This document shows, piece after piece, positions 13,115 through 60,690 of a stretch of 64,000 nt of DNA. Origin of the DNA: Cymodocea nodosa (Eukaryota; Streptophyta; Magnoliopsida; Alismatales; Cymodoceaceae). The notes beneath the pieces were generated by a model. It was not told the DNA's origin. It did not search any database and was given only the letters and a program-made list of their open reading frames with translations. Position 1 is the stretch's first letter; every line of letters begins with the position of its first letter. The stretch covers positions 8,258,501 through 8,322,500 of the forward strand of contig CM072341.1 of NCBI GenBank assembly GCA_036874045.1. Direction: 5' to 3'. The position numbers were made by a program, and so were the translations under genes.

Positions 13115-15369
13115 AGAGGATCAAGAGAAAACAACTTTCACATGTCCTAATGGAACTTATGCTTTTAAGAGGATGTCATTCAGATTATCCAATGCACCAG
13201 CTACCTTTCAAATATGTATGTAGAGCATATTCACTGAAATGATTGAAGATTTTTTAGAAATAATTGTGGATGATTTTACTATATATGAAACTTCATATGA
13301 AGTGTGTTTAAATAATTTAGACCAAATATTAAAATGTTGTGTGAAAAAAAATCTGGTTCTAAATTGGGAAAATGTTACTTCATGGTTAAACAATAAATAG
13401 TCTTGGGACATGTTATTTCAAAGAAAGGGTTGAAAGTAGATAAAGCTAAAATAGAAGTAATTTCTAATCTACTAAAGCCTAAATCAGTAAAAGATATTAG
13501 ATCATTTCTAAGACATGCTGGATTTTATAGAAGATTGATTAAAGATTTTAGCAAAATAGTTAGACCTTTAACTAATCTATTAAAAGATGTCTCATTTAAC
13601 TTTGATAAAAATTGCAAAGAAGCATTTTTCAAGCTTAAAACTAGCTTAATTTCAACTCCTATAATACAAACACCTAATTAGAGCCATCCATTTGAATTAA
13701 TGTGCGATGCATCTAATTTTACTGTAGGAGTAGCGCTAGGACAAAAGATAGAAAAATCTCCTAGAGTGATTCATTATGTAAGCAAAACTTTAAATGATGC
13801 TCAAGTTAATTATACAACTACTAAAAAAGAACTACTAACTGTTGTGTTTGCCTTAGAAAAGTTTAGATCATATCTGATTAGAGCTAAAGTAATAGTATAC
13901 ATGGATCATTCGGCTTTAAAATGCCTAATAGCAAAGAAAGAGACTAAACCTAGATTGATCCGGTGGATATTGTTATTGCAAGAATTTGATATAGAAATTA
14001 AAAATAAAAAAGGTTGTGAGAATGTAGTAGTAGACCATTTATCAAGATTACAAATAGAAAAATCAAATATTGAAATTAAGGATAATTTTCCAAATGAACA
14101 ATTAATGACCATAAACACAATGCCTTGGTATGCAAACATAGTTAATTACTTAGTTACTAGTCTAATACATAAGGATTGAAAAAGATAGGATATGAAATTA
14201 TTCTTTTCAAGAGTGAAATATTACTATTAGGAAGACTCATACTTATTTAATAAATGTCCTGATCTGGTTTTAAGAGTTGTGTTCCAGAAACTGAATATCA
14301 GAGCATATTGTCTTTCTACCACGACCAAGCATGTGGAGGACATTTTGGTTCAGAAAAAACTACTACCAAAATTCTGCAATGTGAATTTTATTGGTTAACA
14401 CTTTTCAAAGATGCTCTTAAATACTACTTAAGTTGTTTAAGATGTCAACAAATAGGAAGGATATCAAAGTGGAATATGATGCCTCTAAACCCTATGTTGA
14501 AGTTGAAATCTTTGATGTATGGGGAATAGATTTTATGGGTCTATTTTCTATGTCTAATCAATTTAATTATATATTGTTAGGAGTGGATTATGTATTTAAA
14601 TAAATAGAAGCTTTTCCTACAAAAACTAATGACAACAAAGTGGTAATATATTTTATAAGAACTAATATAATTGCTAGATTTGGAATACCTAAAGCTATTG
14701 TTAGTGATAGAGGAACTCATTTCTGTAATAAAAGTTTTGAAGCCTTAATGAGAAAATATGGAGTAAATCACAAAATTGCAACATCATATCATCTGCAAAT
14801 AAGTGGACAAGTAGAAAGTGCAGACAAACAAATTAAGTTAATCTTAGAAAAAGTAGTAAATAGATTAATAGATGCATTTTGGGCTTATAGAACTACTTAT
14901 AATACAAGCTTAGGTATGTTACCTTTTAAGATAGTATATGGAAAAAGTTGTCATTTACTAGTTGAAATTGAACATAAAGCTTAATGGGCATTAAAAACTC
15001 TAAACACTAATTTAAATCAAGTTGTTGAAAATCGAAAAATGCAATTGATTGAATTAGGAGAATTTAGGAATGAAGCTTATTTGAAAATTTTAAAAGAAAA
15101 AGAGAAAATGAAGTTTTGGCAGGATAAGAAAATTATTCCAAAAGCTTTTGTAATAGGACAAGAAGTATATCTTTACATGACTAGACTTCATAACCATCTA
15201 GGAAAATTAAGATCTAGATGGGTAGGACCTTACATAATTTGAAATATTTATTCCTATGGAGGTATTGAAATTGAAAATCCTAAAAATCAGAATATATTTA
15301 AAGTAAATGGACAAAGACTTAAACGTATTCTAAAATTCCAAAAAGTTCCTTTGGAATTATAGAAAAAGT
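13115..15369 (+). pseudogene. pol: Athila-type Ty3/gypsy pol remnant: RT, RNase H, integrase
   Basis: RT enters at EDQEKTTFTCPNGTYAF just after the copia LTR, so the front half is missing. The catalytic box reads IIVDDF near 13263. RNase H/connection follows ([29 protein letters not shown] near 13700; [20 protein letters not shown]). Integrase has an HHCC finger (HDQACGGHF ... CLRCQQIG, 14323-14450), then DFMG, SDRGTHFCN and GQVESADKQIK, keeping the D-D-E pattern. FKIVYGKSCHLLVEIEHKA is an Athila-lineage signature. It ends near 15369 after NGQRLKRILK. Stops and frameshifts (13222, 13398, 13680, 14177, 14527, 14983) inactivate it, and about ten codons after EKVVN are lost relative to the copy at 45590-47737. 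Confidence 0.9.
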
Positions 15370-16449
15370 AAGAGTAGAGGACTACTCGAGCTTTATTAAT
15401 TAAGAAATAGATATATGTTAGTATTAAAAAAAAAACTTATTTTAAATATAGCAGTCCAATAGAAAGAAATTATCGGTTTTACCAAAATATATATTAAAAG
15501 AAAAATATTGTTACGATTACACCAAAAGGATCTATTAGTTTGATCGAAACATAAAAATATAAATATATATATATATATTATATTAAGTAAATGTGTCGGT
15601 TTGAACGAAACAAGGCATCAGTTCAACTAGAAAAAAAAAGGCATTCAATTTCGATTCAATAGTGGAAGTATAACGGTTTGATCAAAATTCTAAAATGTTG
15701 AAAAATTAAGAGTCAGAAAAATCAGAAATTCTTTGATCTTGACTGAATTAAAAATTATTATTATAAGTATTTTTATTAGTTATAACTTTACAGGAAGTTC
15801 GTTGAGTTACGCTTAACTCAACAAACTTACTCCATTGAGTCTAGGATAAGTTAATGAAGTTACTCCGTTGAGTTAACTATAACTCAATGAAGTACTTAAG
15901 GTAAGTCCACGAACTTAGTCTATGGAGTTAACCATAACTCCACGGAATAGTATATGTGTATGGATGATATTTGAGCACATTTTAATATGATAATTCATGC
16001 ATTCTATGTCTTGAAACTCAAGTTATATGCACTTATACAAGAAAATACATGTTAATCACATTTTTATGACATTGCATGAATATGTGCACAAATGCACTCC
16101 TTTAATGCAATTTTCATGAAACATACTATATGTTCATATGCTTGAATGTATGATTTAATAATTCTTAGGCCAAGAAAGAGATTTTAAAGGTCATCAAGGT
16201 ATTGAAATAATTTTATATGGCCACATATATTTTACACACTATGGTTATGAACTTGTGGACATTAAATGCAATAATGTGGCATTAGTTATGAATGATTTTA
16301 AATACATGTTACTAATTGATTCATTCATGGATGAACTTACATTTCACATTTGTAAACATGTTAAAATGAATGTTACATACCTTAGAAATAAATATATTTC
16401 AAGTTCATAACTAGAGTTATTTTTGGCATGTGTTACTAACATTACATGC
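15370..16449 (+). other. Gypsy post-pol non-coding region
   Basis: No coding signal. 15560-15580 is a TA microsatellite. 15790-15950 holds inverted repeats of GTTGAGTTA and TAACTCAAC. From about 15965 (TGATATTTGAGCACATTTTAA) the text resembles an Athila-type LTR start, but I see no polypurine tract before it. Confidence 0.4.
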
Positions 16450-19802: not shown

Positions 19803-19816
19803 ATCTCCCCCTTTTT
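19803..19816 (-). promoter_or_regulatory. Polypurine tract of the minus-strand copia
   Basis: Complement reads AAAAAGGGGGAGAT directly before the LTR. A second similar tract lies near 20090. Confidence 0.85.
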
Positions 19817-20272: not shown

Positions 20273-20825
20273 TTATTGACCCCTCCTTAGTATATCACTT
20301 ATAGCATTACATATTTTATCTCCTAGATGCCTAATATCATTTCTGATGTCGTTAAGCACTGCATCTAAGTCAGGAGGTAACTGGGTTTGCTGTTCTGCTT
20401 GAACTGAATAACTTTGTTGTTGTTGTTGTATATAGTCTGTATCAAGTTGTTGTGGTTGTTGTTGTCGTTGAGGTTTATGCATGGCTTGGAATTTTTACAA
20501 ATCTTGGACACTAAATGCTCTCATGCCTTTAGTTTCAGAAGGCAAGTCAGATAAAGTCAATTGGCTTGCAAGGATTCTACATGCAGCATCACCATAAAAT
20601 AACTTTGAACTCATATGCTGTAGTTGAGACAAAAACATCAAACCAATTTATTTGAATTCTATTCAGCAGACCATAAGTTGCATATAAACAGCTTCTGCTG
20701 ACTTCCAAATTGTGTCCAACTCTCTGAAATAAATTTGCATCATTCTCTATTTCTTTTCCTTTTGCATCTCTTCTGCTTTTGCCTTTTCCTTTGCCACGAC
20801 CTTTGTAGAACTTGGAGACCATCAT
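20273..20825 (-). pseudogene. Deleted env-like ORF of the minus-strand copia
   Basis: Starts MMVSKFYKGRGKGKGKSR (ATG complement at 20823-20825) and after about 27 codons jumps to NLFQRVGHNLEVSRSC, which in the fuller copy (4860-7131) lies ~1.7 kb further on. The deletion is in frame. The frame then ends VSTTAYEFKVILW with a stop at 20589, the same break as in the plus copy, and the Gln-rich tail continues in another frame to 20273. It cannot encode the full protein. Confidence 0.75.
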
Positions 20826-25400: not shown

Positions 25401-25525
25401 CCAAATGTTACACTTCCTTTCATGGTATTTGTAAAATTTTGTAATAGACTTTTCTGTCCGGTCATGTGACTTGATGCTCCACTGTCTAATATCTATTTTG
25501 ATGTTGTTTCCTCCTACAACACAAA
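22409..25525 (-). pseudogene. pol: Copia pol of the minus-strand element: PR, INT, RT, RNase H
   Basis: One reading frame runs from the gag stop to the stop at 22409-22411. Protease ILDSGASSHMTG is near 25465-25492, with a TGG-to-TAG just before it. The GAG-pre-integrase motif LWHRRIGHINMKLLHKL is near 25105-25055. Integrase shows MDLFG, SDHGTEFDN and NGVVEKKN. RT/RNase H is open for 418 codons (22706-23962), with GTKWIFRNK, QMDVKSAFLNG, YVDDIIFG, TDADYVGSK and TTEAEYVAAA intact. Further stops include 25211, 24743, 24143 and 22706, most readable as Gln or Trp codons changed by transition. The RT part alone looks catalytically complete; the whole is not. Confidence 0.93.
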
Positions 25526-27225
25526 TTAAGAAAAACTTTTTCTTGATACCCAATGTTGTTGAGGACCAAGTTCATTAAACGCATATTTCTTCTTTTTGTT
25601 TAAAAATAGTTTAACATTATCATTTATATTCTTATTAGTTGTAAGTACTATTGATATATCATTAGCTTCATACTCACATATAGCATTATTACTTTTACAA
25701 TCATTCTTTTTGTTTTTAGATGTAGTATAATCAAGACCAAACAAATTTTTATCAGATGTTAATTTATTTTGGTCATGCATATACATTTCAGTAAGTTCAT
25801 ACCAAGATTTTGTACTTGTATTAAAATTTTCCATATATACAAAATCTTTTTCTACACAAGAATTTTTATTTTTATCACATGCAGAATGAGTAATTGGTCT
25901 AATACTAGTGTATTGAATTACATGCTCAGGTTTTTGAATTTTCAGTTTACTACAATTGTCTGAAATTTTAGAAACATTAGAAACTGAATTTCCAGAACAA
26001 GAAACAAGATTTTTAGAAACATTTATAGTCATGTTAGAAGTACAATTTGACAAATCGCATTGATTTATATTATTACTACATGATTCATCCCTTGAAGTAC
26101 CTACTTCTACATATTTATTACCTTGTTTCATAATAAAAGGAATTTTAGTCTTAGATTTACTTGAACTACAACTAATAAATCCTTTATTGGCTTGAGATTT
26201 AGGATATTCAGGATAATCAAATCCTAAGCCAAATTTATAAGACACCGCTGGGGTATTAGTTAGTTTGTCTAACTTAGATTGACTTAAATTCCATTTCTCA
26301 ATGGTAGAATTTAAATCTTGCTCTCTCAGTTTTAATTTATCTATCTCTAATTCAAGTTCATTTATATTGTTTCTCAACATTTCATTTTCAGATTCTATCT
26401 TTAATTTTTCATCATTTATATTTTGTATTTGTTCATGAAAGATACATTCATTAAATATAAATTTTTGCAAATCTCTAGCATGATTTTCATTATCACATTT
26501 AAACTTTTCTAAAGTAGTAGACAGGAAACAATTTTCTTCTTCCATAATGGATGAAGATTTTCTAATATTCTTATTTTCCAATTTACATACTTTAAGTTTT
26601 TGTAATAATGCATGATAAGCACATAATAATTCATCAAAGTTGAAATCTGAATGACTTTCAGGATCAGATATTACCTCAGACTCATCTGCCATGAAGCACA
26701 CATGAGCAACGTCTTCTAACTCTTGTTCTCCTTCTGAATGTGAAGATTTTGATGCTGATTCCTCAGATTCAGACTCTTCAGACATGTCATCCCAAGTGAC
26801 CTTCAAAGCCTTTTTCTTGTAAAACTTTTTTTGAGTTTTCTGAGCTGTCTTCTTCTGATTTGTCTTACTTTGCTTTTCATTTTTCCTCATAGGACAATCT
26901 GGAGAAAGATGTCCAGGTTTCTTACAGTTGTAACATACATACTTTCTGGATGAAGAATTCTTGTCATTCAGTGATTTTAACGTTGAGGGTTTATCATTTT
27001 TGTTCCTTTGCTGTTTCCTAGCTTTCCATGCTTTCTTGAATTTCCTAGTCAGCAAAATCAAATCCTCGTCAGAATCAGTAGATATATCAAAATCTGAATT
27101 AATTTCGAAGGCTATTTCTTTCTTCATTTTTAGTTTGTTATGACTCAGTGATTCATTTAATTAAACTTCATAAGCTGTTAAATTTTCTATAAGCTCATTC
27201 ATAGTATAAACATTTAACTTAACGA
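25526..27225 (-). pseudogene. gag: Sirevirus gag, 5'-truncated
   Basis: Long open stretch (533 codons from 27127). Upstream, NVYTMNELIENLTAYEV precedes one stop and adjoins LTR sequence at about 27225, so the N-terminal part is deleted. A CCHC zinc knuckle (CYNCKKPGHLSPDC, about residue 62 of the open stretch) binds nucleic acid in this family. An acidic Ser/Glu-rich segment, a long Lys/Glu coiled-coil-like region and a Ser/Asn/Lys-rich tail follow. The TAA at 25526-25528 sits where the plus copy also has one (10765), so it looks like the natural gag end rather than decay. Confidence 0.9.
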
Positions 27226-27659
27226 ATTTTCACCACGTGTATAACACTAACTTAACGAGTTCGTCTCTTCTTTTACTCACTAACTTAACGAGTTATCACG
27301 TGACCTATTTTAACCTTTAAGCCTCTAACTTAACGAGTTCTCACGTGACCTCTATACAAACAAAACTCTAACTTAACGAGTTGTCTAAACGTGCACTGTT
27401 CATGATACAGAAGATATAACTTTAAAACATATCATACTTTTCAATAAAAACACACGTTAACTTAACGTTTAGCTAAATGAGAAATTAATGCAACGAAACG
27501 ACTAGTTATTAACTTCAGATCCAATACAGACAAGTATTTATATCAATAAGCTTTTTCTGTATTAATTGATGATTTTAATTTCTTTTCACAAGCAATAGTA
27601 ATTGAGCAAATATGATTATTTTCATTCAGCACACATCATCAAAACAAAAATACTCAACA
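27226..27659 (-). repeat. Truncated 5' LTR of the minus-strand copia
   Basis: Holds the first ~430 bases of the LTR (TGTTGAG at 27659 inward), then switches to gag at about 27225. The rest of the LTR, TATA box and primer-binding site are missing, so this copy could not be transcribed from its own promoter. Confidence 0.85.
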
Positions 27660-29312
27660 TATGCACTCTATAAGAAAAGGGTCGAAGATAGGTTGAAGGC
27701 CCAATATAAAATTAAAGTAGAGTAGTATTTTGAAATAGCTAGATCACTAGTTGCAAGAGAAACTGAAGTTGGTCCTTCGAGAGTAGTAATTATAGAAACA
27801 ATGAAATAGGAAGAGCTAATACATGTGGCTTGAGGGCTTGAAGAGCCCAATTTTGTAGACTTAGTTTCATTGGAAAAAGAGGAAGAACAAGCACAACTAA
27901 TTAGAAGAAAAGGGAAAAGAAAAGGTGCCTGAGGCTGAGGAGATAGTTAAATTCGAGCCTATACTATCAGTAGAGCCTAAAGAGCTCATTTTTGTTAATC
28001 TACTATCCGAATATGAGGAGGAGCAGGAGCAGTAGTAGCAAGAGCAAAGAAAGGAAGAAAAATAGGTTGAAATTAACCTATAACCTGAGGAATTAGAAAC
28101 TGAAGTTAGGGTAGAATATACTATTCTCATGACTCCATCCCAATCTACCACAGAATCAGAAAGAACAGTAACAATGCAGATTGGTAGTTAGGAGGAAGAA
28201 GAAAGAGAAGAAGTTGAGCAGGAAGTTGAACAAGAAGAAAAGGATTTGATAAATTCCTTTGAAGAAAATAAAACTCTTCAGCAACTTATGGAAAAAAATC
28301 AAGATAAAAATGTGGGAAGTTCTGCAGGCTCTCCACAACAATTCAAAGTAGAAGAGCAAGAATCTCTGGATTATTTTCAACAAGAAATATAACAACAAGC
28401 TCAGCAACTAGAAGAAGAAATTCAAGAATAAACCCCTCTAGAGCAACAAATCCAAATTACTGACCCGTCTGAAGCGACTATTCTGAATGAAGTTCACTTT
28501 TGGAGTCAGGAAGCTTATGATAAGTATCAAGAAATAAAGGGGTATGATATTATTTACAGTAGGCTAGTTGACTAGACTGGAATGGAGGATATTAAAAAAT
28601 TATTCAAATTTCAGGGCCTACTACAAATTATTCCAAAGCAAAAAGGACATGCAATTTATGAAAATTTAGTGCCCTATTTGTATGCAAATTTGAGAGAGGA
28701 AGAAGGAAATTTAATTGCAAACGTAGAAGAAGTTAATATCCAAATAACACTTGAGCTTCTCTACAACATACTCAGATTGAGAAATGAAGGAATTGAAATT
28801 CTAGAACAAACAACTACAGTCGAGTGGACAGAATAGGAAATAAAAGACTGTTTAGCTATCAATCCTAGTGTACCGTTATTAAATAGATTGAAGTACCTAA
28901 ATGGTAAAGCACACATGGTAGTTAACATTTTGATTAAAAATGTCTACCAACGACAAGGCCATGATATAGAACTTAGTCAATTCGTCAAGTGAGCCACATA
29001 TGCAGTTGTGAACAGAATTCAAGTTAATTGGTACAAAGTATTTATCTCCAAGCTGAGAGCAGTAAAGAATAAATTATTTTATGGAGATCTGATTCCATTG
29101 ATGATGGTGGATAGTATTAATTTCACGAAATGGACATATAAAAGGATAAGATCAAGAACCATTTCAATGAAAGAATATAGAAATTATGCTATTGCTACTA
29201 AGATGACTATACCTTCTAGAGAATTTACAAGAGCTATAGAACGAATTAATCAACTAAAACAACAACTAGAAAAGCTCCAAAAGAAAGTAGATGAACTAAG
29301 GAAGAAAGATTA
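27660..29312 (+). pseudogene. Extra ORF homologous to the copia env-like ORF, gypsy context
   Basis: Continues the ORF begun at 17897. The middle (27700-28440) is acidic, Glu/Gln-rich and full of stops. The conserved domain is at 28440-29312: KKLFKFQGLLQIIP, YLYANLREEEGN, NILRLRNEGIEIL, then a TAG at 28834, LIKNVYQRQGHDIEL, a TGA at 28990, VNRIQVNWYKVFIS, KLFYGDLIP and a coiled-coil-like tail LKQQLEKLQKKVDELRKKD. This aligns end to end with 6300-6930 of the copia ORF, including RIQ(I/V)NW and KLFYGD, and here KLFYGD is in the same frame as what precedes it. Function unknown. I infer a retroelement accessory protein, not a host enzyme. Confidence 0.65.
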
Positions 29313-30438
29313 AATCTATTATTCATCTACTTGTATTGAAAATGTCTGATTGTATATACTGTAAACGATATATATATATTAATGTTTGAACATCAATTTA
29401 TTTTTGAATTTGCGTAATTGCGAATGAATGATTTAATTGAGAACTATATTGAAGATAAATATTATATATATATCAGTTTGAAGCTTTGCAGGACTATGTT
29501 ACAAGTTTTACAATTTTATGAATGACATGGTTAAATGCACAATGATTGGATAATATCTGAACATTTCTGTATACTAAAAAGAAAAATATAAATTTCTGCA
29601 TAATAGGAAATGAATTGTAAGTTAAATATGCATATAATGTTCAAATTTAAATGAGTCTAAATTAGAACACTACATTAATGTAATGTATTTAACTTTATTT
29701 GAGTTGATGACATGTAGAAAAAGAAATATTAAAGTTAAGATGAAAAGTAAGTTCTTAGAAAAAATTTGGTAAGTGTTAACTCAATGAAGTAAGTTCATTG
29801 AATTAACCTTAACTCCACAAGGTCAATAATAAAATATAAGGTCACTCTCTTGAGTTATCTGTAACTCAACGAAGTTAGTCCATGAAGTTAGCAAATGGGC
29901 AACGAAGCTGGTCCGTTGAGTTAGCTGTAACTCAATGAGATTAGTTCGTTGAGTTAGAAACAGTAATCGGAGCTAGTTCATTGAGTTATTTGTAACTCAA
30001 CGAGGTTAGTTCGTGGATTTAGTGTAACGGTTATTCTTTTAGCCACGAATAGAAACTTCGTCGATTTAGTGGTTACTGAAATTTGAAATGAGAAGTGGAA
30101 TATCCATAAAAATAGAAACCATACTACATGTTACAAGACATGTTCTTGCAACGAGATTCATTTGTCTTATGGACGTGCATTATAAATATAGAACAAAATG
30201 TTATTTATTAGTTACCATCACTTGAGGAAAGAAAAAAAAATTCATTGGGGAATTGAAAGGAGAAGCAGCTGATTCAACTTCATCCGTCAACAACTATTTA
30301 CTAAGAACAAAGCATCAGACTGGTATGTAATTGATCTTGTACTATTTTACTTTATGTTAAGAGTTTATGAGCACATGGACACGTTCTCCTAGCACTAAAT
30401 GATTAGTAAGAACACCTACACAGGATTATTCAACATAG
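29313..30438 (+). promoter_or_regulatory. Leader or promoter-like region upstream of gag
   Basis: No ORF. 29760-30040 has alternating GTTGAGTTA and TAACTCAACGA motifs. A TATA-like TATAAATATAG lies near 30182, and ACTGGTATGTAAT near 30320 looks like a 5' splice donor. It may be LTR or leader sequence; I found no TG...CA ends. Confidence 0.35.
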
Positions 30439-33382
30439 AAGCGTATTGAAATATTTTCTGAATTGAACTTTAACGAAATCCTTAGGGGTGTAGCTAACCT
30501 TTCTTTAAAGGAGAACAAAGATATAACTACTCCAATAGAAAAACCATTAGGAGAAATTTTGTATCTTGAATTAGTTGATGAACCTTCATGTATTCGATTG
30601 CCAAACTTTGAGGGAGATACGTTTGAACTGAAATCTAATTATATTAGTCAATTACCACACTTTCATGGATTAGAAAGAGAAGATGCCTATTATTTCCTTA
30701 AAGAATTTAACAAAGTTTGTCAAATGATGAAAATGTCAAACATGAGTATTGATGCTATTAAACTTAGATATATCCCTTTTTCTTTAAAAGACATAGTTAA
30801 GAGATGGTTATATACTCTATCGATTGATTCAATTTCTGCATAGACTGAATTTTGCTTTGTTTTTTTGAAAAAATATTATCTAACACATCAAACGATTAAA
30901 AAGAAAAAGGAAATATTAATGTTGTTGAGTATTTTGTTTTGATGATGTGTGCTGAATGCAAGTAATCATATTTGCTCAATTACTATTGCTTGTGAAAAGA
31001 AATTAAACAACATCAATTAATGCAGAAAGCATTTACTGATATAAATATTTGTCTATATTGGATCTGAAATTATATTAAGTTAAATAGCTAGTCGTTTCGT
31101 TACATTAATTTCTCATTTAACTGAATGTTAAGATAACATGTATTTTTATTGAAAAACATGATATGTTTTAAAGTTATATCTTCTGTATCATGAACAGTGC
31201 ACGTTTAGACAAACTCGTTAAGTTAGAGTGTTATTTGTATAGAGGTCACGTGAGAACTCATTAAGTTAGAGGCTTAAAGGTTAAAATAGGTCATGTGAGA
31301 ACTCGTTAAGTTAGTGAGTAAAAGAAGAGATGAACTCATTAAGTTAGTATTGTACACGTGGTGAAATTAAAGGTTACGAATGTTATATTGTATCATGTGA
31401 GGTGAACATGTTTAACTTGTTAAGTTAACATAACTAAATGCATTGAGTTGCTATATTGAACACTAAGGCAACGCATTAGGTTAGCATTATAAACTTAAGT
31501 TGTTATTTTTGCACGTGGTAAAATTCTTATTATAAAAATATTTGTTTATCACTGGTTCATTGAGTTATCTGCAACACAACGGAGTTGGTTCGTTAAGTTA
31601 TCGTAACACCACGAAGTTAGTTCGTTGAGTTAGCGTAACACCACAGACTTGGTTCGTTGAGTTAGCGTAACACCACAAACTTAGTTCGTTAAGTTAGCTA
31701 TAGTACTTATCACGTGAGTTGGCACATGAAGAACTCATTAAATTAGAAACATTAAGTTGTATATCTACTTGTGTTACTCGTTTAGTTAACATTAAAGTAA
31801 CAACTACTTATTATTACACTTCATGAAAAATTTGGATGAGAAAGTTTATTTTGTAGGAAATTTTTCAGAGATCTAGGATTGATGATTAAAGAAAATTTGA
31901 AATGTAAATGTGGGTTAGAACGTGTGTATTTCGATGAAGGAAAAAGAGAAGACGTGAAGAAGTAGAAAACTAGTAGTGATTAAATGTGGAGGATATGCAT
32001 GAAATGAAGATAGAGTATAAAAGGCATAGAATTCTCGTTGATCAATTATCCCTACACACCAAACAAAAAATCTTTTCAGAGAAAAGCTCTTAGATGGAAG
32101 AAAATTCAGTGAAGTAGAAAAAGTCAGATTTATGTCACTAAAGATCTGAAGTATCAAGAGAAAGAAAATTCACTGAAGCAGAAAAAGTCAGATTTATGTC
32201 ATTGAAGATTTGAAGTATCAAGAGAAAGTAAATTCGATAAAGCAGAAAAAGACAAGATATTTGTCATTGAAGAATTGCTAAAGAAGGAAAAGAAGAAGAA
32301 GAAGAAGAAAGATCTCAAATAGGGAGAAATATTTTAAATTCTACATATTAGTTTTCTCTATTTATAGTTATGAAATTGTATAGATGAAACATGGTATCGA
32401 TATATAACTGCATCTACAATCTCTGAGGAGAATTGAATTGTATATTGTAATTGAAACCTTGAATAAAATGATTTTATGAAAATAGTGTCTCAACTTGTTT
32501 TTGAGTTTTGAAGTTTCAATTATAATCAGAAAAAGTTGAAAAACACAATTCACCCCCCTCTTGTGTAGTCATACGATCCTACAAATGTGTAGCCAAAAAC
32601 AGGGAGAATCATTTTGGAAATATTTTGAAAGATTTAAAGATTTACTAACTCAATGTCCACATCATGCAATGAGTAAAGCACAATTAATAGGTATAATTTA
32701 TGAAGGCATAGATGTTTCAACTAAATCTTTATTAGAATCTACTTGTCAAAATGGATTTTTAAAATTGTGTAGTGAAGAAGCATGAGCATACTTAGAAAAC
32801 TTTACAAAAAAAACTTCATAGTGGGAAAACTCAGCTGAAGCTATTACAGATAAAAGAATATTGCCAAAGGGAATACATGAAATAGATTCCAGCACTATGC
32901 TTGAAGTTAAATTAACTGAGTTAACAAAGAAAATAGAAGAGTTATTATTAAATCAAAAGCTAGCAGAAAAGAATGCAAATGTTAATGACTTAGATATTAT
33001 TTATGCTAGAAACTAGAAAGATAACTTTGGAAATTCTTATAACCCTAATTAGAGAAATCACTCGAACCTATCTTGGAAAAATAACAATTTCTAGGGAGGA
33101 GAAAATATAAAAGAAAAAAATATAAGTTATGAAGCATTAATTGAATAAGGATCTAGAATAGAGAAGTTAGAAAAGATAATTCAACAATTAAACAATCGTC
33201 TAGACCTTGTATTTGGAAATGCTGCCATTCAAAATCATAATATGAATAGAAATATACCCCCTAGACAGAAGTAATCAATAGAAGTTAGACCTACTGGAGG
33301 ATTGCCATTGCAAGCAGTACCTAACCTTGTCAATAGAACTGTTAATGAAATTGATACCTCTTTTGGGAGGGAAGCTGAGTGA
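30439..33382 (+). pseudogene. gag: Athila-type gag of the F-box element, split by a solo LTR
   Basis: Left part 30439-30922 and right part 32589-33382 flank the solo LTR. The retrotransposon gag domain is clear: PNFEGDTFELKSNYI, REDAYYFLKEFNKVCQMM, IKLRYIPFSLKD, then after the insertion GESFWKYFERFKDLLTQCPHH. The C-terminal region has NSYNPN and NNRLDLVFGN. I see no CCHC knuckle. No clear ATG remains: the frame opens after a TAG at 30436. Several stops follow (30841, 32782, 33015, 33109 and others), mostly at positions that are Trp or Gln in the copy at 55233-56341. Ends at TGA 33380-33382. An F-box ORF follows 224 bases on, where protease and RT would be expected. Confidence 0.85.
30923..32583 (+). 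repeat. Copia solo LTR with perfect 5-bp target duplication
   Basis: TGTTGAG...CCTACA, 1661 bases, flanked by AATGT at 30918-30922 and 32584-32588. The homologous unoccupied site, with AATGT once, is in the second gag near 55550. It differs from the 7613-9362 LTR around 31555-31700, where several ~35-bp repeats of GTTCGTTGAGTTAGCGTAAC replace the TTTTCGGA-containing part, so it belongs to a second LTR subfamily. TATA box near 32015. Confidence 0.95.
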
Positions 33383-33606
33383 AGCAGTATAACTAAAGCA
33401 ACTATGTATAATATAGTAAGTAGAAAAATATAAATATAAAAAGAAAAAAATGTAACTTTAATTGTAGTTAGTAGTATCATAGAGTTATTACTTAACTTAA
33501 CGAACTTAGTGCATTGAGTTATGACCTAACTCCATAAGGATGTATAAGTAGCTATGTTAATTTTATCTCTACAAAATTTTGTTTATGTTATATAGAATCA
33601 CAACAG
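33383..33606 (+). other. Spacer between gag and F-box ORF
   Basis: AT-rich, with a CTTAACGAACTTAGTGC / GTTGAGTTATGACC inverted-repeat-like motif, and ending ATCACAACAG immediately before the F-box ATG, which could serve as a splice acceptor. The second copy (56342-56530) has the same layout with the same inverted motif. Confidence 0.4.
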
Positions 33607-34743
33607 ATGGAATTGATGAAATTATCACTAGATGCATTGAGGGAAGTACTGAATAACTTATCAGCTAAATATCTGTGCAGATTGTGTTGTGTGTCAAAGG
33701 AAATTAAAGAATGTGTTAGTGAAAAATATTTTTATGGACTACAAGCTGCAAAGATGACTAATATTAGAGATGAATTTTTATGGAAGACATTTAATCGTAG
33801 TTCAATCAGCTATGAATATCTAAATTTGGAAGAAACTACTAGAATTCCACCCAATATGTAAAAAGGAATAAATCATATTATGGGAATAGATGAAGGATTA
33901 ATTATTTACAAAACCAAACCAAGGTATGCAATTCTGTTACCCAATATTTTGATTAGAAATCCTATTACTAGAGAAGAATGGAATATAGGAAAGCCTAATA
34001 GATTTGAAGTACCAACTGAAAATTGTGGGTCAGCATTAACATTTTTTGATAAAAATTCGACCATTCCTGAAAAATTGTATTACTAGAGACCAACTAGAAA
34101 TTGGGATGAGGATTTATGCTTAAGTATGTATAATTTTTTGACTAAATCTTGGACTAAAAATACTATGATATATCTAGGATAGAAAGTATTAATTAACAGC
34201 ATACATGTCATACTTGATGGATATATATCTAGTTACAAATATATCAGTTACATTTAGATCTGATTTATACATAGTAAGCATAGATAGTTATGTTGACGAC
34301 TTTATAGAAATATTGCTTATACCTAATGATATAGCTAAACCACCATCTACAGAACATGATAAAATTCAATTAGGAGTATGATATAATGAATATGATGATC
34401 CTACTTTGTGTTTAGTAAGATGGTGGGATGAACTGATGAAATTTCAAATATAGATTATGAAAGATCTAAATGAATGGAAGTGGGAAGAGGAATATATTGA
34501 AATATATGTAGAAACAGAAACAACTCCATAATCTTGGAACAGAAAAGGATCGCTTTCTGCATTTCAATTCACTAATGGTAATACACTTATATTTAGTATT
34601 GATAACATACTGCAAGTTTACAAGTTAAAAAAGAGAGCAGACTGCATTAAAATAGAATTAATAGCAAGAAGAATTATGCCTAAAAAGTTTGCTTGGACTG
34701 ACATGTTTATTCCATTGGTCGTTACTTTTCAATTATGTTCTTA
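33607..34743 (+). pseudogene. F-box protein gene (F-box plus FBA-like domain), copy A
   Basis: F-box proteins are substrate receptors of SCF ubiquitin ligases: the F-box binds SKP1 and the C-terminal domain binds the target. The ATG at 33607 opens MELMKLSLDALREVLNNLSA, then KYLCRLCCVSKEIKECV, a good F-box (about residues 5-43). Downstream, NIGKPNRFEVPTE, VILDGYIS and WWDELMKFQI match the pattern of the plant F-box-associated (FBA) domain. It ends near 34743. Stops at 33859 and 34084, more later, and at least one frameshift near 34210 disable it. It sits between an Athila-type gag and that element's 3' region, in the same orientation, so it travels inside a retrotransposon. The family name is from motif memory, not a search. 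Homologous to 56531-57668. Confidence 0.75.
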
Positions 34744-36558
34744 AATTGTGATTTTGTACTTTTAATGTTGTGTGTACTCTGCATTTATATTTAGAAAGAA
34801 AAAAAAAATTAGTTTCTGTTTTAATTTCTATAAAAAAAAAATATATCAATCCAATTTGTTGGTATCTGTTGTAGGAAACCAACTAGCTTGCTTGTGAGAC
34901 ACCAAAGGCATAGGATCCTGGTTTCCACACAAGACACTGATTTAACAATTTATGTTTTGTTGTTAAGTTGTTATTTTGCTATATATTCTACTTTTATTTG
35001 TGAATGAAATATTTTTCAAAATCAAAAGTCGAAAGATATTGAAGGAGATACAAAGAACAAGGTATGTAATTAATTACCTACCTTGAATTTACATTCAAAC
35101 TCAATTCGTGGAGTTATTCATTAACTCAACGAATTAAGTTCGTTGAGTTAGGTGCTAAGTCAATGAAACAATATTCATGTCTGCTAATATTTTCTATATT
35201 TACTGTAAAATCTTTTACATTGAGGACAATGCAAAATGTAGGTATGGGAGAGAGGTAATTAGATTAAATCCAAGTAACCTTGTTAATTAGAGGAACTAGA
35301 ATTGTGTTGCATATTTTTGTAGAAACTAAAATTTTTTTTTATGAATTTGCTGTAACTAACCGAAAATTCCTATAATTATCTGATAATTGAAACTATAAAA
35401 AAATTATGACTGCTTGAATGTTATATTTAGAATCTTATATAAGATGCTACAAATTTTACTATTAATACAAATCTAGATATAGTATCTTATGTTTTTACTG
35501 AATTTTATGAGTTTAAAGTTTCACAATTTTAAAGAAATCAAAATGTTTAACTGAAACTTAGGAAATGATCTGAAATCCTGAAAGAGCTTAAATATTGTTT
35601 TTTGGATTAAATGAAATACATATGATCAAGGATACATTTAATTTGATTGATTAAACTTGTAGAATGATTTATGTGTAAATCTTATTAAACTATAGAAAAA
35701 GTATGAGCATATTGATATAGACTCACGTTTTCAATAAATTATAGAAGTAGGATTATATGAGATTTGTGTTTTATTGCATCTGTATTAATGAAATACTTAT
35801 ATATACTGTGTTGAAAAGGGAAAAGAGGAAAAAAAGAGAAAAACTTTGAGAGTTTATTGATTTATTTGGTCACAAGTCTTTTGTACTTAAGCAGATAGGT
35901 ATGTAAAGATTGTTAACCTAAAAAAAGACTCTTTAAATCTGACAACCTAAGATCCTGATCAGATCTGGGATTATTGATTGAAAGCTCGATACATGGGTAC
36001 ATTAGAAAGCTCTTGTATGATTCAAACTTTTCAAATTAACTTTTAAAGTAAAAATATGCATATACTATTCTAAAAAGATAAAAGTGTTTTGTGAAAATAT
36101 AGAAATCTTTTGAATCGAGTATATTTTCTGTTATTTATGATTACTAAAGTATGAATCTAGATTAGACTTTTGAAGTTGCTTGTGTGAGATACAATTTATT
36201 ATTCTTCTTGTTTTAATCATATTGACTTGGATTGTGTTTTGATTCATATGTAATTAAAATTTATTCTGGAAATCATATTGGAAAATTCAAGATAACAGAT
36301 GTTTGAAAAAATGATAATATAATTACCAACTATGTGATGCTAATATATTTTGTATGTAATTTACATATGTTTTAAATATATTTGCAGATGGAGAGGAGAA
36401 AACAATATTAAATTAGATTACTGAATTAATATAGAGTATATTTATATTAATCTAATCTATGTGTTCTGAAGAAATAAAATGAAGAATTAATTTTAGCACT
36501 TGAGAAAAGACCAACTAGTTAGATCTTAGTAGTTTGCTAAGGGACTAGCAAAAGTTAA
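34744..36558 (+). other. Long 3' region of F-box element A
   Basis: No coding signal. In order: poly-A runs; a stem GTTGGT/ACCAAC near 34858; a donor-like AAGGTATGTAAT near 35060; GTTGAGTTA/TAACTCAAC motifs; ACATTGAGGACAATG near 35217 followed by a purine run; then about 35410-36390 homologous to the copia block at 2674-4345. Copy B (57669-59394) has the same order. Confidence 0.7.
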
Positions 36559-36570
36559 GTATGGGGGAAG
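36559..36570 (+). promoter_or_regulatory. Polypurine tract, F-box element A
   Basis: GTATGGGGGAAG directly before the LTR start TGTTTAGAATG; identical in copy B at 59395-59406. Confidence 0.8.
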
Positions 36571-43153: not shown

Positions 43154-43159
43154 AGTTTT

Positions 43160-43176
43160 TGGCGTCGTTGCCGGGG
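43160..43176 (+). promoter_or_regulatory. Primer-binding site for tRNA-Asp
   Basis: TGGCGTCGTTGCCGGGG matches the complement of the plant tRNA-Asp 3' end at 16 of 17 positions, six bases after the LTR end. Use of this tRNA fits the Athila lineage. Confidence 0.9.
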
Positions 43177-43302
43177 ATTGGCAATTTGGCTTAGTTTATT
43201 TTTACCATATTTGAAGTTCTTAATTGGTTGTTTGATAAATTTTCATAAACATATCTTTCTTGTGCTTAGTTGTGAATTTTATTGCTTAAATTTCTTGCAA
43301 GT

Positions 43303-54625: not shown

Positions 54626-54719
54626 TTTGATGTTTTTAATTTCTTTTCACAAGCAATAGTAATTGAGCAAATATGATTACTTTCATTCAGCACACATCAT
54701 CAAAACAAAATACTCAACA
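54626..54719 (-). repeat. Copia LTR terminal fragment
   Basis: The complement gives the first ~94 bases of the copia LTR (TGTTGAGTATTTTG...). The rest is missing. It abuts F-box element sequence exactly at the LTR terminus. Confidence 0.8.
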
Positions 54720-55232
54720 AATGTTGTGTGTATTCTGCATTTATTTTTAGAAAAAGAAAAGAAAAAAACAAAATATCAATCTAGTTTGTTGGTATTTGTT
54801 CTAGGAAACCAACTTGCTTGCTTGTGAGCCACCAAAGGCATAGGAGCCTAGGTTCCACACAAGACACTGAATTAACAATTTATGTTTTGTTATTTTATTA
54901 TATATTCTGCTTTTATTCGTGAATGGAAAGTTTTTCAGAATCAAAAATCGAAAGATATTAAAGGAGATACAAAAGAACAAGGTATGTAATTGATTACTTA
55001 TCCTGAATTTAGATTTAAACTCAATTCATGGAGTTATTCATTAACTCAACGAATTAAGTTTGTTGAGTTAGGTGCTAAGTCAACGAAACAATATTCCTGC
55101 CTGCTAACATTTACTGTATTTACTATAAAATCTTTTACAATGAGGACAATGCAAAATGTAGGTATGAGGGGGGAAAGTAATTAGATTAAAAGCCAAGTAA
55201 TTTTGTTAATTAAATGAATTAGAATGGTACTG
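54720..55232 (+). repeat. Fragment of the F-box element 3' region, upstream of gag B
   Basis: Collinear with 34764-35290 and 57687-58160: the hairpin near 54786, donor-like AAGGTATGTAAT near 54980 and ACAATGAGGACAATG at 55137. It joins gag sequence at TGCAAAC (55231-55237). Confidence 0.85.
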
Positions 55233-56341
55233 CAAACTTTGAAGGAGATAGGTTTGAACTGAAATCTAATTATATTAGTCAATTGCCACATTTTCATAGA
55301 TTAGAAAGAGAGGATGCCTATTATTTTCTTAGAGAATTTAATGAAGTTTGTCAAATGATGAAAATGTCGAACATGAGTATAGATGCTATTAAACTTAGAT
55401 ATATCCCTTTTTCTTTAAAAGACACAACTAAGAGATGGTTATATACTCTATCGCCTAATTCAATTTCTACATGGACTGAATTTTGCTTTGTTTTTCTGGA
55501 AAAATATTATCCAACACATCAAACGATTAAAAAGAAAAAAGAAATATTAATGTGTAGCCAAAAATAGGGTGAATCATTCTGGAAATATTTTGAAAGATTT
55601 AAAGATTTACTGACTCAATGTCCACATCATGGAATGAGTAAGGCACAATTAATAGGTATAATTTATGAAGGCATAGATGTTTCAACAAAATCTTTATTAG
55701 AATCTACTTGTCAAAATGGATTTTTAAAGTTATGTAGTGAAGAAGCATAGGCATATTTAGAAAACTTTGCAAAAAGAACTGCATAGTGGGAAAACTCAAC
55801 TGAAGCTATTATAGATAAAAGAATATTGCCAAGGGGAATGCATGAAATAGATTCAAGTACTATGCTTGAGGTGAAATTAACTGAATTAACAAAGAAAATA
55901 GAACAGTTATCATTAAATCAAAAGCTAACAAAAAAGAATGCAAACATAAATGATTTAGATATTATTTATGCTAGAAACTAGAGAGATAACTTGGGAAATT
56001 CTTATAATCCTAATTGGAGAAATCACCCGAATTTATCTTGGAGAAACAACAATTTCCAAGGAGGAGAAAATGTAAATGAGAAGAATATAAGTTATGATGC
56101 ATTACTAGAACAAGGATCTAGAATAGAGAAATTAGAAAAGATAATCCAACAATTAAACAATCATCTAGATTTTGTACTTGGAAATGGTGCAATTCAAAAT
56201 CAGAATAGAAATATACCACTTAGACAAAAGGAACCAATGGAAGTTAGACCTACTAGAGGATTGCCAATACAAGTAATACCTAATCCTGTCAATAGAACGA
56301 TTAATGAAATTGATACCTCTTGTAGGAGGGTAGTTGAATGA
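55233..56341 (+). pseudogene. gag: Athila-type gag of F-box element B, 5'-truncated
   Basis: One frame from NFEGDRFELKSNY to the TGA at 56339-56341. It has REDAYYFLREFNEVCQMM, the gag core ESFWKYFERFKDLLTQCPHH, NSYNPNWRNHPNLSWRNNN and a coiled-coil-like RIEKLEKIIQQLNNHLDF. About four or five stops (55565, 55748, 55784, 55979) lie at likely Gln or Trp codons. No zinc knuckle seen. The AATGT near 55550 is the empty site of the solo LTR in copy A. The N-terminal part was lost at the junction with the 3'-region fragment. Confidence 0.87.
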
Positions 56342-56530: not shown

Positions 56531-57668
56531 ATGGAATTGATGCAATTACCGTTGGATGCACTAAGGGAAGTACTGAGTAATTTATCAGCTAAAGATCTAT
56601 GCAGGCTGTGTTGTGTATCAAAGGAAATTAAAGACTATATTGAGGAAAAATATTTTCAAGGACTACAAGCTGCAAAAATGACTAAGATTAGAGATGGATT
56701 CATATAGAGGTCATTTAATCGTAGTTCAATTAACCATGAATATCTGGCTATGGAAGAAACTACTGGAATTCCACCCAATACATTAGAAGGAATAAATCAT
56801 ATTATGGGGATAGATGAAGGATTAATCATATATAGGATGAGACCAAGGTATGCAAGTTTATTATTACCTGATATTTTGATAAGAAATCCTATAATAGGAG
56901 AAGAATGGAATATAGGAAGACCTAATAGATTTGAAGTACCAACTCTAAATTATGGATCGGTTTTAATATTTTCTAATAAAAATTCTACAATTCCTGAAAA
57001 ATTATATTATTGGAGACCTACAGAAAATTAGGGTGAAGATTTACGCTTAAGTGTATAATTTTCTGAATAGATCTTGGACTGAAAATATTATGATATATCT
57101 AGGACAGAAATCATTAATTAACCAAACACATGTCATACTTGATGGATATGTATATCTTGTCACAGATATATCAATAGCATTTGGATCTGATTTATATATA
57201 GTGAGCATAGACAGTTATGATGAATATATAGAAATTTTACCTATACCGAGTAATATAGCTAAACCACCATCTGTAGAATTTAATAAAATTCAACTAGGAA
57301 TGTGGTATAATGAAGAAGATGATCCTACTTTATGTCTAATAAGATGGTGGGATGAATTGATGAAATTTCGAATATGGATTATGAAAGACATTAATGAATG
57401 GAAGTGGGAAGAGAAGTATATTGAAATAGATGTAGAAATAGAAACGGCTACATTACCTTGGAACCAAAAAGGATCCCTTTCTGCATTTCATATAATTAAT
57501 GGTAATACACTTGTATTTCAAATTTATAATATATTACACATTTACAAATTAAGATGGAACAAGAACTACATTAAAATAGAATTAATAGCAAGAAGAACTA
57601 TGCCTAAAAAGTTTGCTTGGACTGACACGTTTATTCCATTTGTTCCTACTTTTCAATCATGTTCTTAA
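56531..57668 (+). pseudogene. F-box protein gene (F-box plus FBA-like domain), copy B
   Basis: ATG at 56531: MELMQLPLDALREVLSNLSA then KDLCRLCCVSKEIKDYI, a better F-box match than copy A. It continues EYLAMEETTGIPPNTLEGIN, NIGRPNRFEVPTLN and, after a 2-base loss near 57049, an open 205-codon stretch (57051-57668) with LGQKSLINQTHVILDGYVYL, SIDSYDEYIEILPIPSNIAK, PTLCLIRWWDELMKFRIWIM and KKFAWTDTFIPFV. This order (display-like strands, 'I-P-x-P', then W-I-M-K) is characteristic of F-box-associated domains. Full length would be ~378 residues, usual for the family. Defects: TAG at 56705 and 57029 (both Trp in copy A) and the 2-base deletion. None is shared with copy A. SCF-receptor function is inferred from family knowledge only. 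Confidence 0.8.
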
Positions 57669-59394: not shown

Positions 59395-60667
59395 GTATGG
59401 GGGAAGTGTTTAGAATGAAAAAGTGCATATTATTAACGATTAAATGATGGTTAATTGCATAATATTTAGCTTATCATATGATAATTAAGCCATTATGTTA
59501 TAATTGCACTATTATATGCTTTAATTAAAAAATCTGCTTAATTTTGGGGAATTAATGTCAATTTAGTACATTTCTGAACTGTCGGTAAGTTGCAGGGTGT
59601 GAAATTCTTAAGTATCCGAAATTTCTGATATTTTGGACAGTTATGTTTAACATACTGAACATATTTCAGACAGTTATGTTTAGCATACCGAACATGTATC
59701 AGATAGTTATGTTTATATTGCTAAACAGTTACGCTTTAAAAGAATATTTTATTATTTCTAGAAGTACACGTGTCGAAACCATAATGCTTGACTTAAGTGA
59801 ATTTTCGGTGAGTTATCTATAACTATCCGAAATGCATCTAAGCATCGGATAGTTAGACTTGCAACTCTCCGAAATGTTTCTTTTATTATTAAACTATTGT
59901 TGACACGTGTCGAGATCTAGTAGATTTACTTAAGTTATATATCGGTGAGTTATTTGTAACTATCCGAAATGCATCTAGGCATCGGATAGTTAAGTTTGTA
60001 AGTATCTGAAATGCACCTGAGCATCGGATAGTTAAATTTATGCATGTGTTTTATAGTTAAATCAACGAGGTAAGTCCGTTGAGTTATCTACAACTCCACG
60101 GACTATTTATTTTCTAATATGCCACTGTAGCAGTTGCAGAAACAGGACAGTTGGAAAAAAACCACGATTGCATATATTGCGCAGGGAGAAGAAATCATTG
60201 TCGTTGATATGAATGAAGGAAATCCAACCGACCATTCATGTAGAAGCAGTTACTACTGAAGAAATATAAAAGAAAAGAAGAAAAAGAACAAAAGTGTGTG
60301 ATCGATGGACGGCCAGTGTGTACAAAGGAGGAGCACCGAGCTTTCTACAGGCAGCGTCAGCAATTCTCCAAAGTACCACACCAACCATCGTTACCGCCAT
60401 CACCACCATAATCACCAACCATTAGAGGTCTATGAGAATACTTTCTAGATGTCGGGTCGATTCCAAACCAAACACGGTGCCTGACAACCACTATGAGAAG
60501 TGATCACGTTGCAAGAAAGGAAGCCATTTTCACCAAGCGCCAACTCATATTTCAGGAGATCGTAAAGCTTCTAGCCTTGACTTCGGGTTGATGCCTATAT
60601 GTTGAAGAGGAGATCATCTTGCAATTCTGGACTTGCGATTCTATAGGGAGAGGAGACAAGATTGTAA
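59395..60667 (+). repeat. Polypurine tract and 3'-truncated LTR of F-box element B
   Basis: GTATGGGGGAAG then TGTTTAGAATG at 59407. LTR sequence with CATCGGATAGTTA and GACACGTGTC motifs runs to GATTGTAA at 60667, where an unrelated G-rich sequence begins. Copy A continues TGATTAAG at that point, so the LTR is interrupted, not naturally ended. Confidence 0.8.
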
Positions 60668-60690
60668 GGGGGGGTTTGTGCCTACTCGAA
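60665..60690. other. Candidate left end of a PIF/Harbinger-type DNA transposon
   Basis: TAA followed by GGGGGGGTTTGTGCC interrupts the LTR. PIF/Harbinger elements duplicate a 3-bp TWA target and have G-rich termini, and a transposase fragment of that family lies ~1.8 kb on. The right end was not found in the window. Confidence 0.4.

What the first reader, a model, noticed from the sequence alone, without database searches (positions are those of the whole stretch)
30439..34743. Retrotransposon in which gag is followed by an F-box gene instead of pol
Directly seen: Athila-type gag, a ~200-base spacer, an ORF with a clear F-box and an FBA-like C-terminal region, a long 3' region, a polypurine tract and an LTR, all on one strand. 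The same gag/F-box/3'-region order recurs at 55233-60667. Known: plant F-box proteins are SCF receptors, and retrotransposons can capture host genes. Inference: a non-autonomous gypsy lineage has fixed an F-box gene as cargo. An element-coded ubiquitin-ligase receptor could target host silencing factors or control Gag level, which I have not seen described.
Basis: partly seen in the sequence, partly recalled or inferred. Interest (0 to 1): 0.92.

Follow-up and report, generated by a model that had tools for sequence, protein, structure and literature searches.

The report
Retrotransposon carrying its own F-box gene
An abundant plant jumping gene carries a selectively maintained gene for a likely ubiquitin-ligase receptor and has its capsid gene moved behind its polymerase, so mobile DNA may here direct the destruction of chosen proteins in its host cell.

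Summary
The two window copies belong to a high-copy Athila-like family in a 375-Mb plant genome (5714 first-look candidates, best 150 scored, all matching). Pol lies upstream. Order, pieced from several copies: LTR, CCHC motif with PR-RT-RH-INT, Transposase_32-like ORF, gag capsid, F-box, 3' module, PPT, LTR. One insertion has a 5-bp target duplication and LTR divergence 0.040. So the capsid gene sits 3' of pol; a second family in the window also has gag after integrase. The F-box is a resident gene: PF00646 in 6 of 6 open copies scanned, frame open in 15 of 20 sampled copies (taken from the best scorers), dN/dS 0.28-0.54 against about 0.8 in neutral simulations. Gag lies in a GT-AG intron; its spliced junction occurs 198 times genome-wide against 1383 unspliced acceptors, with at least 5 changes forced on a tree. 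Spliced RNA was thus repeatedly reverse transcribed. SCF action and target are inferred. The listings of ten literature searches showed no such element.

The parts
13115..15435 (+). copy A, part of pol: RNase H and integrase (fragmented frames)
   Evidence: PF17917 2e-32, PF00665 1e-8; 13115-14861 89% to L029 pol; 3' end shared with L017, L023, L025
15750..15896 (+). copy A, part of the INT-ORF1 intergenic region
   Evidence: 78-79% to L017, L023, L025
17726..17959 (+). copy A, further part of the INT-ORF1 intergenic region, just before the nested SIRE insertion
   Evidence: 76-81% to L017, L023, L025
18051..27659 (-). SIRE copia element nested in copy A (not part of the element)
   Evidence: self-comparison and Pfam RVT_2 4.8e-74
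27660..29316 (+). copy A, ORF1 (Transposase_32-like), broken
   Evidence: 71% to the open ORF1 part of L024; PF20167 5e-5, below the curated cut-off, in L024
30181..30194 (+). TATA-like element about 140 bp upstream of the donor (putative internal promoter)
   Evidence: TATA-like sequence in 16 of 16 aligned copies
30323..33595 (+). intron in copy A (donor CTG|GTATGTAAT, acceptor TATATAG|AATC) that contains gag; includes the 1.66-kb SIRE solo LTR
   Evidence: spliced junction in L017, L025, L035 and 198 places genome-wide
30424..30921 (+). copy A, gag capsid, N-terminal part
   Evidence: 82% to the L013 gag
30922..32583 (+). solo SIRE LTR inserted in gag (not part of the element)
   Evidence: 85-89% to SIRE LTR sequence at 7612-9361
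32584..33382 (+). copy A, gag capsid, C-terminal part; no zinc knuckle
   Evidence: 80% to L016 gag
33607..34743 (+). copy A, F-box gene (broken: 6 stops, 1 frameshift)
   Evidence: PF00646 5e-9
35062..36387 (+). copy A, 3' module bounded by splice-like signals; 35569-36322 shared with SIRE elements
   Evidence: 75-82% to window 2812-4259; no spliced form found with one junction pattern
36558..36570 (+). copy A, polypurine tract
   Evidence: direct reading; same kind in L030
36571..39235 (+). copy A, 3' LTR with an internal ~0.8-kb tandem duplication
   Evidence: end read by eye
54721..55240 (+). post-F-box fragment of another copy, fused to copy B in mid-gag
   Evidence: 87% to 34832-35302
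55233..56341 (+). copy B, gag capsid (N-terminus missing)
   Evidence: PF03732 4e-8
56531..57668 (+). copy B, F-box gene (broken: 2 stops, 1 frameshift)
   Evidence: FBA_1 4e-4, just under cut-off; 88-91% to L014
58014..59261 (+). copy B, 3' module
59407..60668 (+). copy B, LTR (partial)

Best explanation
It is a pol-bearing Athila-like LTR retrotransposon family of about 16.5 kb with a rearranged gene order: LTR, CCHC motif with PR-RT-RH-INT, Transposase_32-like ORF1, gag capsid, F-box, 3' module, LTR. Gag sits inside an intron. Unspliced RNA can encode capsid; splicing removes gag and places the F-box gene next to a short leader exon. The F-box protein most likely joins the host SCF ubiquitin ligase and marks a host or element protein for turnover in a way that helps the element. 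Shown: gene order, presence in the copies examined, purifying selection, splicing followed by reverse transcription. Inferred: SCF assembly, the target, the benefit, an internal promoter, and that the 5' CCHC motif is the left-behind nucleocapsid part of Gag.
For: F-box frame open in 15 of 20 sampled copies; PF00646 E 1e-7 to 5e-10 in 6 of 6 scanned. Element context in 20 of 20: family post-F-box sequence follows in 20, LTR further downstream in 18, gag upstream in 17, and 2 of the other 3 are spliced copies. Pol to F-box: INT end upstream of ORF1 in L017, L023, L025; among 150 INT and 150 F-box places, 6 same-strand pairs with the F-box 2.5-6.4 kb downstream, none upstream and none on the opposite strand within 7 kb. 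5' end: LTR to CCHC ORF in 4 of 5 fetched starts, chosen for long open integrase frames. TSD and PBS-like site. Selection: A against B omega 0.349, 0 of 5000 neutral simulations as low from either start; 7 disjoint pairs of open copies 0.28-0.54, 0 of 1000 simulations with so low a non-synonymous share; non-coding frames behave neutrally. Splicing; 8 parsimony changes, at least 5 forced.
Against: No RNA or protein data. The FBA match is below its cut-off in every copy scanned (7 of 7), and the fold prediction was poor (mean pLDDT 38), so the substrate domain is not established. No homologue at E 0.01 was found among 5.8 billion proteins, so the donor gene and target are unknown. The 20 copies come from the best-scoring 150 of 5714 candidates, which favours intact ones. 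In all-pairs raw dN/dS one wrong frame gives nearly the same median as the true frame (0.455 against 0.411). The TSD-bearing copy was read at its two ends, not in the middle. No spliced form of the 3' module was found.
Confidence: 0.7

Rival explanations
1. The F-box protein acts on the element's own products: capsid (unspliced) and F-box (spliced) come from one intron switch, and the F-box marks capsid or Pol for turnover, limiting copy number or timing assembly.
For: Gag lies exactly in the intron whose removal gives the F-box message; both genes are selected.
Against: No contact or target data; a brake is hard to square with the high copy number.
Confidence: 0.2
2. The F-box gene is passive cargo from one host-gene capture and has no role.
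For: Plant LTR elements do transduce genes (PMC7264820, part 1 of 3 read).
Against: omega 0.28-0.54 against about 0.8 neutral; open frames in 15 of 20 sampled copies.
Confidence: 0.07
3. The gag-less copies are deletions, not reverse-transcribed spliced RNA.
For: Other internal deletions with short homology exist in the family (L015, L027). Spliced copies are also clustered on the tree (5 of 500 label shuffles as low), as a spreading deletion would be.
Against: The junction falls exactly on GT and AG in L017 and L025, which were fetched without looking for it, and in L035, which was picked by its INT-F-box distance. It recurs 198 times (control 0), and the tree of 22 spliced and 17 unspliced copies forces at least 5 changes. 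The 20 further spliced copies of that tree were found by the junction pattern itself.
Confidence: 0.05
4. One reading: a non-autonomous lineage in which the F-box replaced pol.
For: Between gag and F-box there is no pol, in the window or in the 17 sampled copies with gag.
Against: Pol lies upstream in the same element.
Confidence: 0.03
5. The protein has lost ubiquitin work and serves a structural or RNA role, for example in place of the zinc knuckle lost from the moved gag.
For: The moved gag lacks a zinc knuckle; the FBA match is weak.
Against: The F-box motif itself is conserved (codons 1-45 omega 0.23 in A against B, 90 and 112 of 3000 simulations as low).
Confidence: 0.1

Closest known systems
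Athila lineage (Athila4, Calypso, Diaspora, BAGY-2; Ty3/gypsy, OTA clade)
   Same: PR-RT part 39-50% identical to that of 15 plant polyproteins with a gag domain; long LTRs, a GCCGTTGCCGGGGA-type PBS, a Transposase_32-like ORF, large non-coding regions
   Different: Canonical order is GAG-PROT-RT-RH-INT, in Diaspora as one ORF (PMC6317226 and PMC1142308, passages); here the capsid is a separate gene after pol and an F-box gene follows it
BAGY-2 and plant env-like 3' ORFs expressed by splicing
   Same: A 3' gene reached by splicing (PMC7264820, part 1 of 3 read)
   Different: The gene is an F-box, the intron holds gag, and spliced copies are themselves inserted many times
Polerovirus P0
   Same: A selfish element's F-box-type protein; P0 suppresses silencing through AGO1 (PMC6593998, start of abstract in a listing; PMC3588083, passages)
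   Different: P0 is an RNA-virus protein with an F-box-like motif; this is a 378-379-aa protein with a Pfam F-box and unknown target
Nanovirus Clink
   Same: Virus-coded F-box protein binding SKP1 (PMC3588083, passages)
   Different: Clink binds RB through LxCxE (same passages) and belongs to a DNA virus (recalled)
SIRE copia elements of the same genome
   Same: Homologous env-position ORF (34% identity, E 7e-34) and a homologous 3' module
   Different: Another superfamily (Ty1/copia) and no F-box in the window copies
Maize Bs1 and other gene-transducing LTR elements
   Same: Host-type gene inside an LTR element (PMC7264820, part 1 of 3)
   Different: Here the gene is kept across a large family under selection

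Membership tests
LTR retrotransposon | paired LTRs, target-site duplication, PBS, PPT | tested here: met
   L029/L030: LTR K2P 0.040, TSD AGAGT, PBS-like site, PPT
Athila lineage (Ty3/gypsy) | pol order PR-RT-RH-INT | tested here: met
   RVT_1, RNase H and rve in order in L029; no protease Pfam match there, the protease region is placed by alignment to plant polyproteins
Athila lineage (Ty3/gypsy) | gag N-terminal to pol in one polyprotein | tested here: not met
   Capsid lies after INT; in the 15 of 15 compared plant polyproteins with a gag domain, capsid precedes a PR-RT part
Athila lineage (Ty3/gypsy) | place within Athila in an RT tree, no aRH domain | not tested
   No RT tree was built; hence 'Athila-like'
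Athila lineage (Ty3/gypsy) | tRNA-Asp primer site | tested here: inconclusive
   TAGCGCCGTTGCCGGGGAA after the LTR; the tRNA letters are recalled, not computed
Athila lineage (Ty3/gypsy) | 3' extra ORF with Athila ORF1/Transposase_32 domain | tested here: inconclusive
   PF20167 5e-5 but 23.7 bits against a cut-off of 45
F-box protein | F-box domain over the Pfam cut-off | tested here: met
   PF00646 31.9-39.4 bits, cut-off 20.5, in 6 of 6 open copies scanned
F-box protein, FBA subfamily | FBA C-terminal domain over the Pfam cut-off | tested here: not met
   20.7 bits in a B fragment, cut-off 21.1; 13-17 bits in 4 and no match in 2 of 6 open copies
F-box protein | binds SKP1 and forms an SCF ligase | not testable with these tools
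   needs binding assays
Non-autonomous element lacking pol | no pol in the element | tested here: not met
   pol upstream
Retrovirus-like spliced accessory gene | spliced message for a 3' gene | tested here: met
   genomic copies of the spliced form, 198 against 1383 unspliced acceptors; RNA itself not seen

The most novel reading that the evidence does not exclude
A retrotransposon that codes for its own SCF substrate receptor, made by a splice switch that swaps capsid for F-box, and uses it to destroy a host silencing or cell-cycle factor, as P0 and Clink do for plant viruses. The same lineage broke the gag-pol order, and it shares its env-position gene and 3' module with Ty1/copia SIRE elements, so accessory genes move between superfamilies.
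Probability: 0.35. Interest if true: 0.93.

Novelty: new variant of a known kind. Interest (0 to 1): 0.8.

Why it matters
Plant retrotransposons often carry extra genes of unknown use. Here is one with a recognisable biochemical role, kept by selection in a large family, with a clear test (which SKP1, which target). If it removes a silencing factor, transposons wage the same arms race as viruses. The moved capsid gene also suggests that gag need not precede pol, which matters because a large survey sorted elements by domain order (PMC6317226, passages) and could miss such families.

Tried and rejected
Rejected: gag-less copies as plain deletions (see rivals); F-box as chance ORF (off-frames carry 47 and 58 stop-containing codon pairs against 8 in frame); stops as recoding (by eye they look like C-to-T and G-to-A decay). 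A spliced form of the 3' module was sought by one junction pattern: 0 hits. AlphaFold of the F-box protein gave mean pLDDT 38, so no fold search was made. PDB search by profile: 0 hits. Protein database search of the F-box: none at E 0.01, although the same database returned 7970 pol relatives, those with names in the listing being plants. Viral contigs: none. Host FBA genes by Pfam family search: none, and none in the controls either, so uninformative.

Ten literature searches: in their listings (titles and starts of abstracts) I saw no F-box gene resident in an LTR retrotransposon and no gag-after-pol Athila. Several listed papers that hold the word F-box (for example PMC5142383, PMC7602945, PMC12888819, PMC7998346) were not opened. 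Most subscription papers are not in that library. A survey of extra ORFs in Ty3/gypsy elements by Steinbauerova and others is cited in papers I saw but was not held. Papers opened: PMC11963269 (abstract and outline), PMC1142308, PMC11728184, PMC3588083, PMC6317226 (passages), PMC7264820 (part 1 of 3 and passages).

Counting notes: L027 also has an open F-box but was left out of alignment A1 and the dN/dS set by oversight (14 of 15 open copies used). The tree left out L011 (truncated) and L001-L008; its long rows L042, L051 and L057 were kept; 22 of its 36 inner branches are poorly supported.
Full report
WHAT WAS CLAIMED AND WHAT IS THERE. The finding names a gag, spacer, F-box, 3' region, PPT and LTR on one strand at 30439-34743, repeated at 55233-60667. 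Self-comparison of the window and Pfam confirm this. Copy B has Retrotrans_gag (PF03732, 4e-8), copy A an F-box (PF00646, 5e-9) and copy B a C-terminal FBA_1-like stretch (4e-4, 20.7 bits, cut-off 21.1). The two copies are 79-93% alike segment by segment from mid-gag to the LTR, apart from the short stretch before the PPT at 75%. In copy A gag is cut by a solo SIRE LTR at 30922-32583. Both F-box frames are broken (A: 6 stops and a frameshift; B: 2 stops and a frameshift), so neither window copy codes for the whole protein now.

A LARGE FAMILY. The window lies in a 374.6-Mb plant genome (G000, C13:8258501-8322500). Its F-box C-terminal part has 5714 first-look candidates; the best 150 were scored and all matched at 88-100% identity (the 100% row is the window itself). 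Junction patterns alone find 1383 unspliced and 198 spliced F-box starts with up to 3 mismatches. I fetched 20 of the 150 with about 10 kb each, spread down the list. In 20 of 20 the F-box is followed by the family's own post-F-box sequence (in several its first 60-80 bases do not align; in L011 only part is present); an LTR lies further downstream within the stretch in 18 (not in L015 and L020); gag, at least in part, lies upstream in 17. Of the other three, L011 is truncated within the F-box, and L017 and L025 are spliced copies (below). The ORF1 region is present upstream in 15 of 20. The F-box frame is fully open (378-379 codons) in 15 of 20. This sample comes from the best scorers and so favours intact copies.

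POL IS THERE, UPSTREAM. Sequence upstream of ORF1 in L017, L023 and L025 is the end of an integrase gene and its flank, homologous to window 15014-15435. Copy A is therefore one element: pol part (13115-15435), a SIRE insertion (18051-27659), ORF1 (27660-29316), gag, F-box, LTR. The stretch 15897-17725 was not matched and may be a further insertion. Searching the genome with the integrase gave 6426 candidates, again with the best 150 scored. Comparing the two lists of 150 places, 6 same-strand pairs have the F-box 2.5 to 6.4 kb downstream of integrase; none has it upstream, and none lies on the opposite strand, within 7 kb. One of the six (L015) is a rearranged copy. At the other end, L029 shows LTR, PBS-like site, then within about 120 bp an ORF with a C-x2-C-x4-H-x4-C motif, then one open frame with RT, RNase H and integrase. 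The CCHC motif is weak by Pfam in L029 (E 0.003, under cut-off) and gave no match in L034 and L027. The same LTR-to-CCHC start region was seen in 4 of 5 fetched starts, chosen for long open integrase frames (L029, L031, L033, L034; L032 held a SIRE element). L029 and L030 are the two ends of one insertion of about 16.5 kb in a SIRE pol gene: target duplication AGAGT, LTR pair 1790 aligned bases with 69 differences, K2P 0.040. I did not read its middle; the INT-to-F-box distance fits the unspliced arrangement.

GAG IS MOVED, PERHAPS SPLIT. The capsid gene (PF03732, 1e-19 in L013 and L021) lies after pol and ORF1. It ends in a stop codon of its own and has no zinc knuckle in L016 and L022; the CCHC motif at the start of the pol ORF may be the part left behind. 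In related plant polyproteins, our capsid matches a part in front of PR-RT within one ORF in 15 of the 15 compared that carry a gag domain (P0017 and P0032 also hold another RT block before a capsid). A second family, complete in the window at 41541-51859 (LTR K2P 0.018), has the C-terminal part of gag after integrase. In two other copies of that family, chosen for a 454-codon frame, gag is a separate ORF 300-310 bp behind the integrase stop (L038, L039). A survey defines Ty3/gypsy by the order GAG-PROT-RT-RH-INT (PMC6317226, passages), and Diaspora has one gag-pol ORF (PMC1142308, passages).

SPLICING. In L017, L025 and L035 the sequence runs from CAGACTG (CAAACTG in L025) straight into AATCRACAAATGG, where unspliced copies have CTG|GTATGTAATT ... 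TTATACAG|AATC about 1.55 kb apart with gag between them. L017 and L025 were fetched without looking for this; L035 was picked by its INT-F-box distance. The junction occurs 198 times in the genome with up to 3 mismatches, against 0 for the reversed control and 1383 for the unspliced acceptor (patterns of 36 and 39 bases, so the ratio is rough). I fetched 20 more such places, found by the pattern, and built a tree of 22 spliced and 17 unspliced F-box copies. Spliced copies do not form one group: 8 changes by parsimony, at least 5 forced by well supported branches. They are nonetheless clustered (5 of 500 shuffles as low), and 22 of 36 inner branches are poorly supported, so some intron-less forms may have multiplied as such. 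Spliced RNA has thus been made and reverse transcribed repeatedly. A TATA-like box about 140 bp before the donor is present in 16 of 16 aligned copies and may start a shorter message; that is inference.

SELECTION. Between A and B the F-box has omega 0.349; in 5000 neutral simulations with the non-coding substitution spectrum none was as low (mean 0.82 from B, 0.78 from A), while the two wrong frames fall inside the null. Gag has 0.26, and the frames of the 3' module and post-F-box sequence behave neutrally. Seven disjoint nearest pairs among 14 open copies, 3-6% apart, give 0.28-0.54 (0 of 1000 simulations with so low a non-synonymous share). The 14 were chosen for open frames and one further open copy (L027) was left out, so stop counts in that set mean nothing; the dN/dS share is less affected. 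Over all 91 pairs the median is 0.411, and one wrong frame gives a similar raw median (0.455), which is why the simulation, not the raw ratio, carries the argument.

HOW IT PROBABLY WORKS. The F-box motif is complete and conserved. The plain expectation for such a protein is SKP1 binding and target choice by its C-terminal part. Because capsid and F-box are the unspliced and spliced outcomes of one intron, the element can trade particle protein against F-box protein. The target may be host (silencing or cell cycle, as for P0 and Clink; PMC3588083, passages) or the element's own capsid. Nothing here decides between them; I favour a host target because both genes are kept and the family has spread widely.

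KNOWN AND NEW. Conserved extra ORFs in Athila elements, env-like genes reached by splicing, and gene capture are known (PMC7264820, part 1 of 3 read; PMC11728184, passages, which reports a Transposase_32-like ORF in a sunflower Athila). An F-box gene as a resident of an LTR retrotransposon, and a capsid gene behind pol in this lineage, appeared in none of the listings of my ten literature searches, which cover open-licence papers only and of which I opened six papers. I therefore call it a new variant of a known kind, and do not file it as a strict Athila member because the gag-pol order fails.

Noticed in passing
window 41541-51859: A second, young Athila-like family (LTR K2P 0.018) in which gag also follows integrase; two other copies have a stand-alone 454-aa gag ORF there.
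   Followed up: partly
window 2812-4259 and 6180-6921 against 35569-36322 and ORF1: SIRE copia elements share with this gypsy element both the 3' module (75-82% DNA identity) and the env-position ORF (34% protein identity), which suggests exchange between superfamilies.
   Followed up: partly
window, 48 places, e.g. 8434-8477, 15798-15891, 29862-30004, 35105-35150, 56418-56446: Motif TTCGTTGAGTTA (up to 1 mismatch) 48 times against 0.48 expected, often as facing pairs, in LTRs and between genes of unrelated element families.
   Followed up: no
window 35891-35907 and 3136-3152: Inside the shared 3' module a short GCAGATAGGTATGTAA block that reads like an acceptor followed at once by a donor, present in SIRE and in this element.
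   Followed up: no
C13:8094766-8104387 and window 48044-57665: The second family's gag and the copy B F-box recur at 98% identity with the same 9007-bp spacing about 212 kb upstream, so this part of the window looks segmentally duplicated.
   Followed up: no
window 36571 to about 41200: Two LTRs of the family stand side by side, the first with a 0.8-kb internal tandem duplication.
   Followed up: no
window 60839-61545: GC-rich degenerate tandem array with open frames reading like SKLADRSK repeats.
   Followed up: no
window 62485-62820: Fragment of a PIF/Harbinger-type transposase (PF13359, 3e-5, just under its cut-off).
   Followed up: no
L052-L055: Some spliced, gag-less copies group together, so intron-less forms may have multiplied on other copies' capsid.
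   Followed up: no
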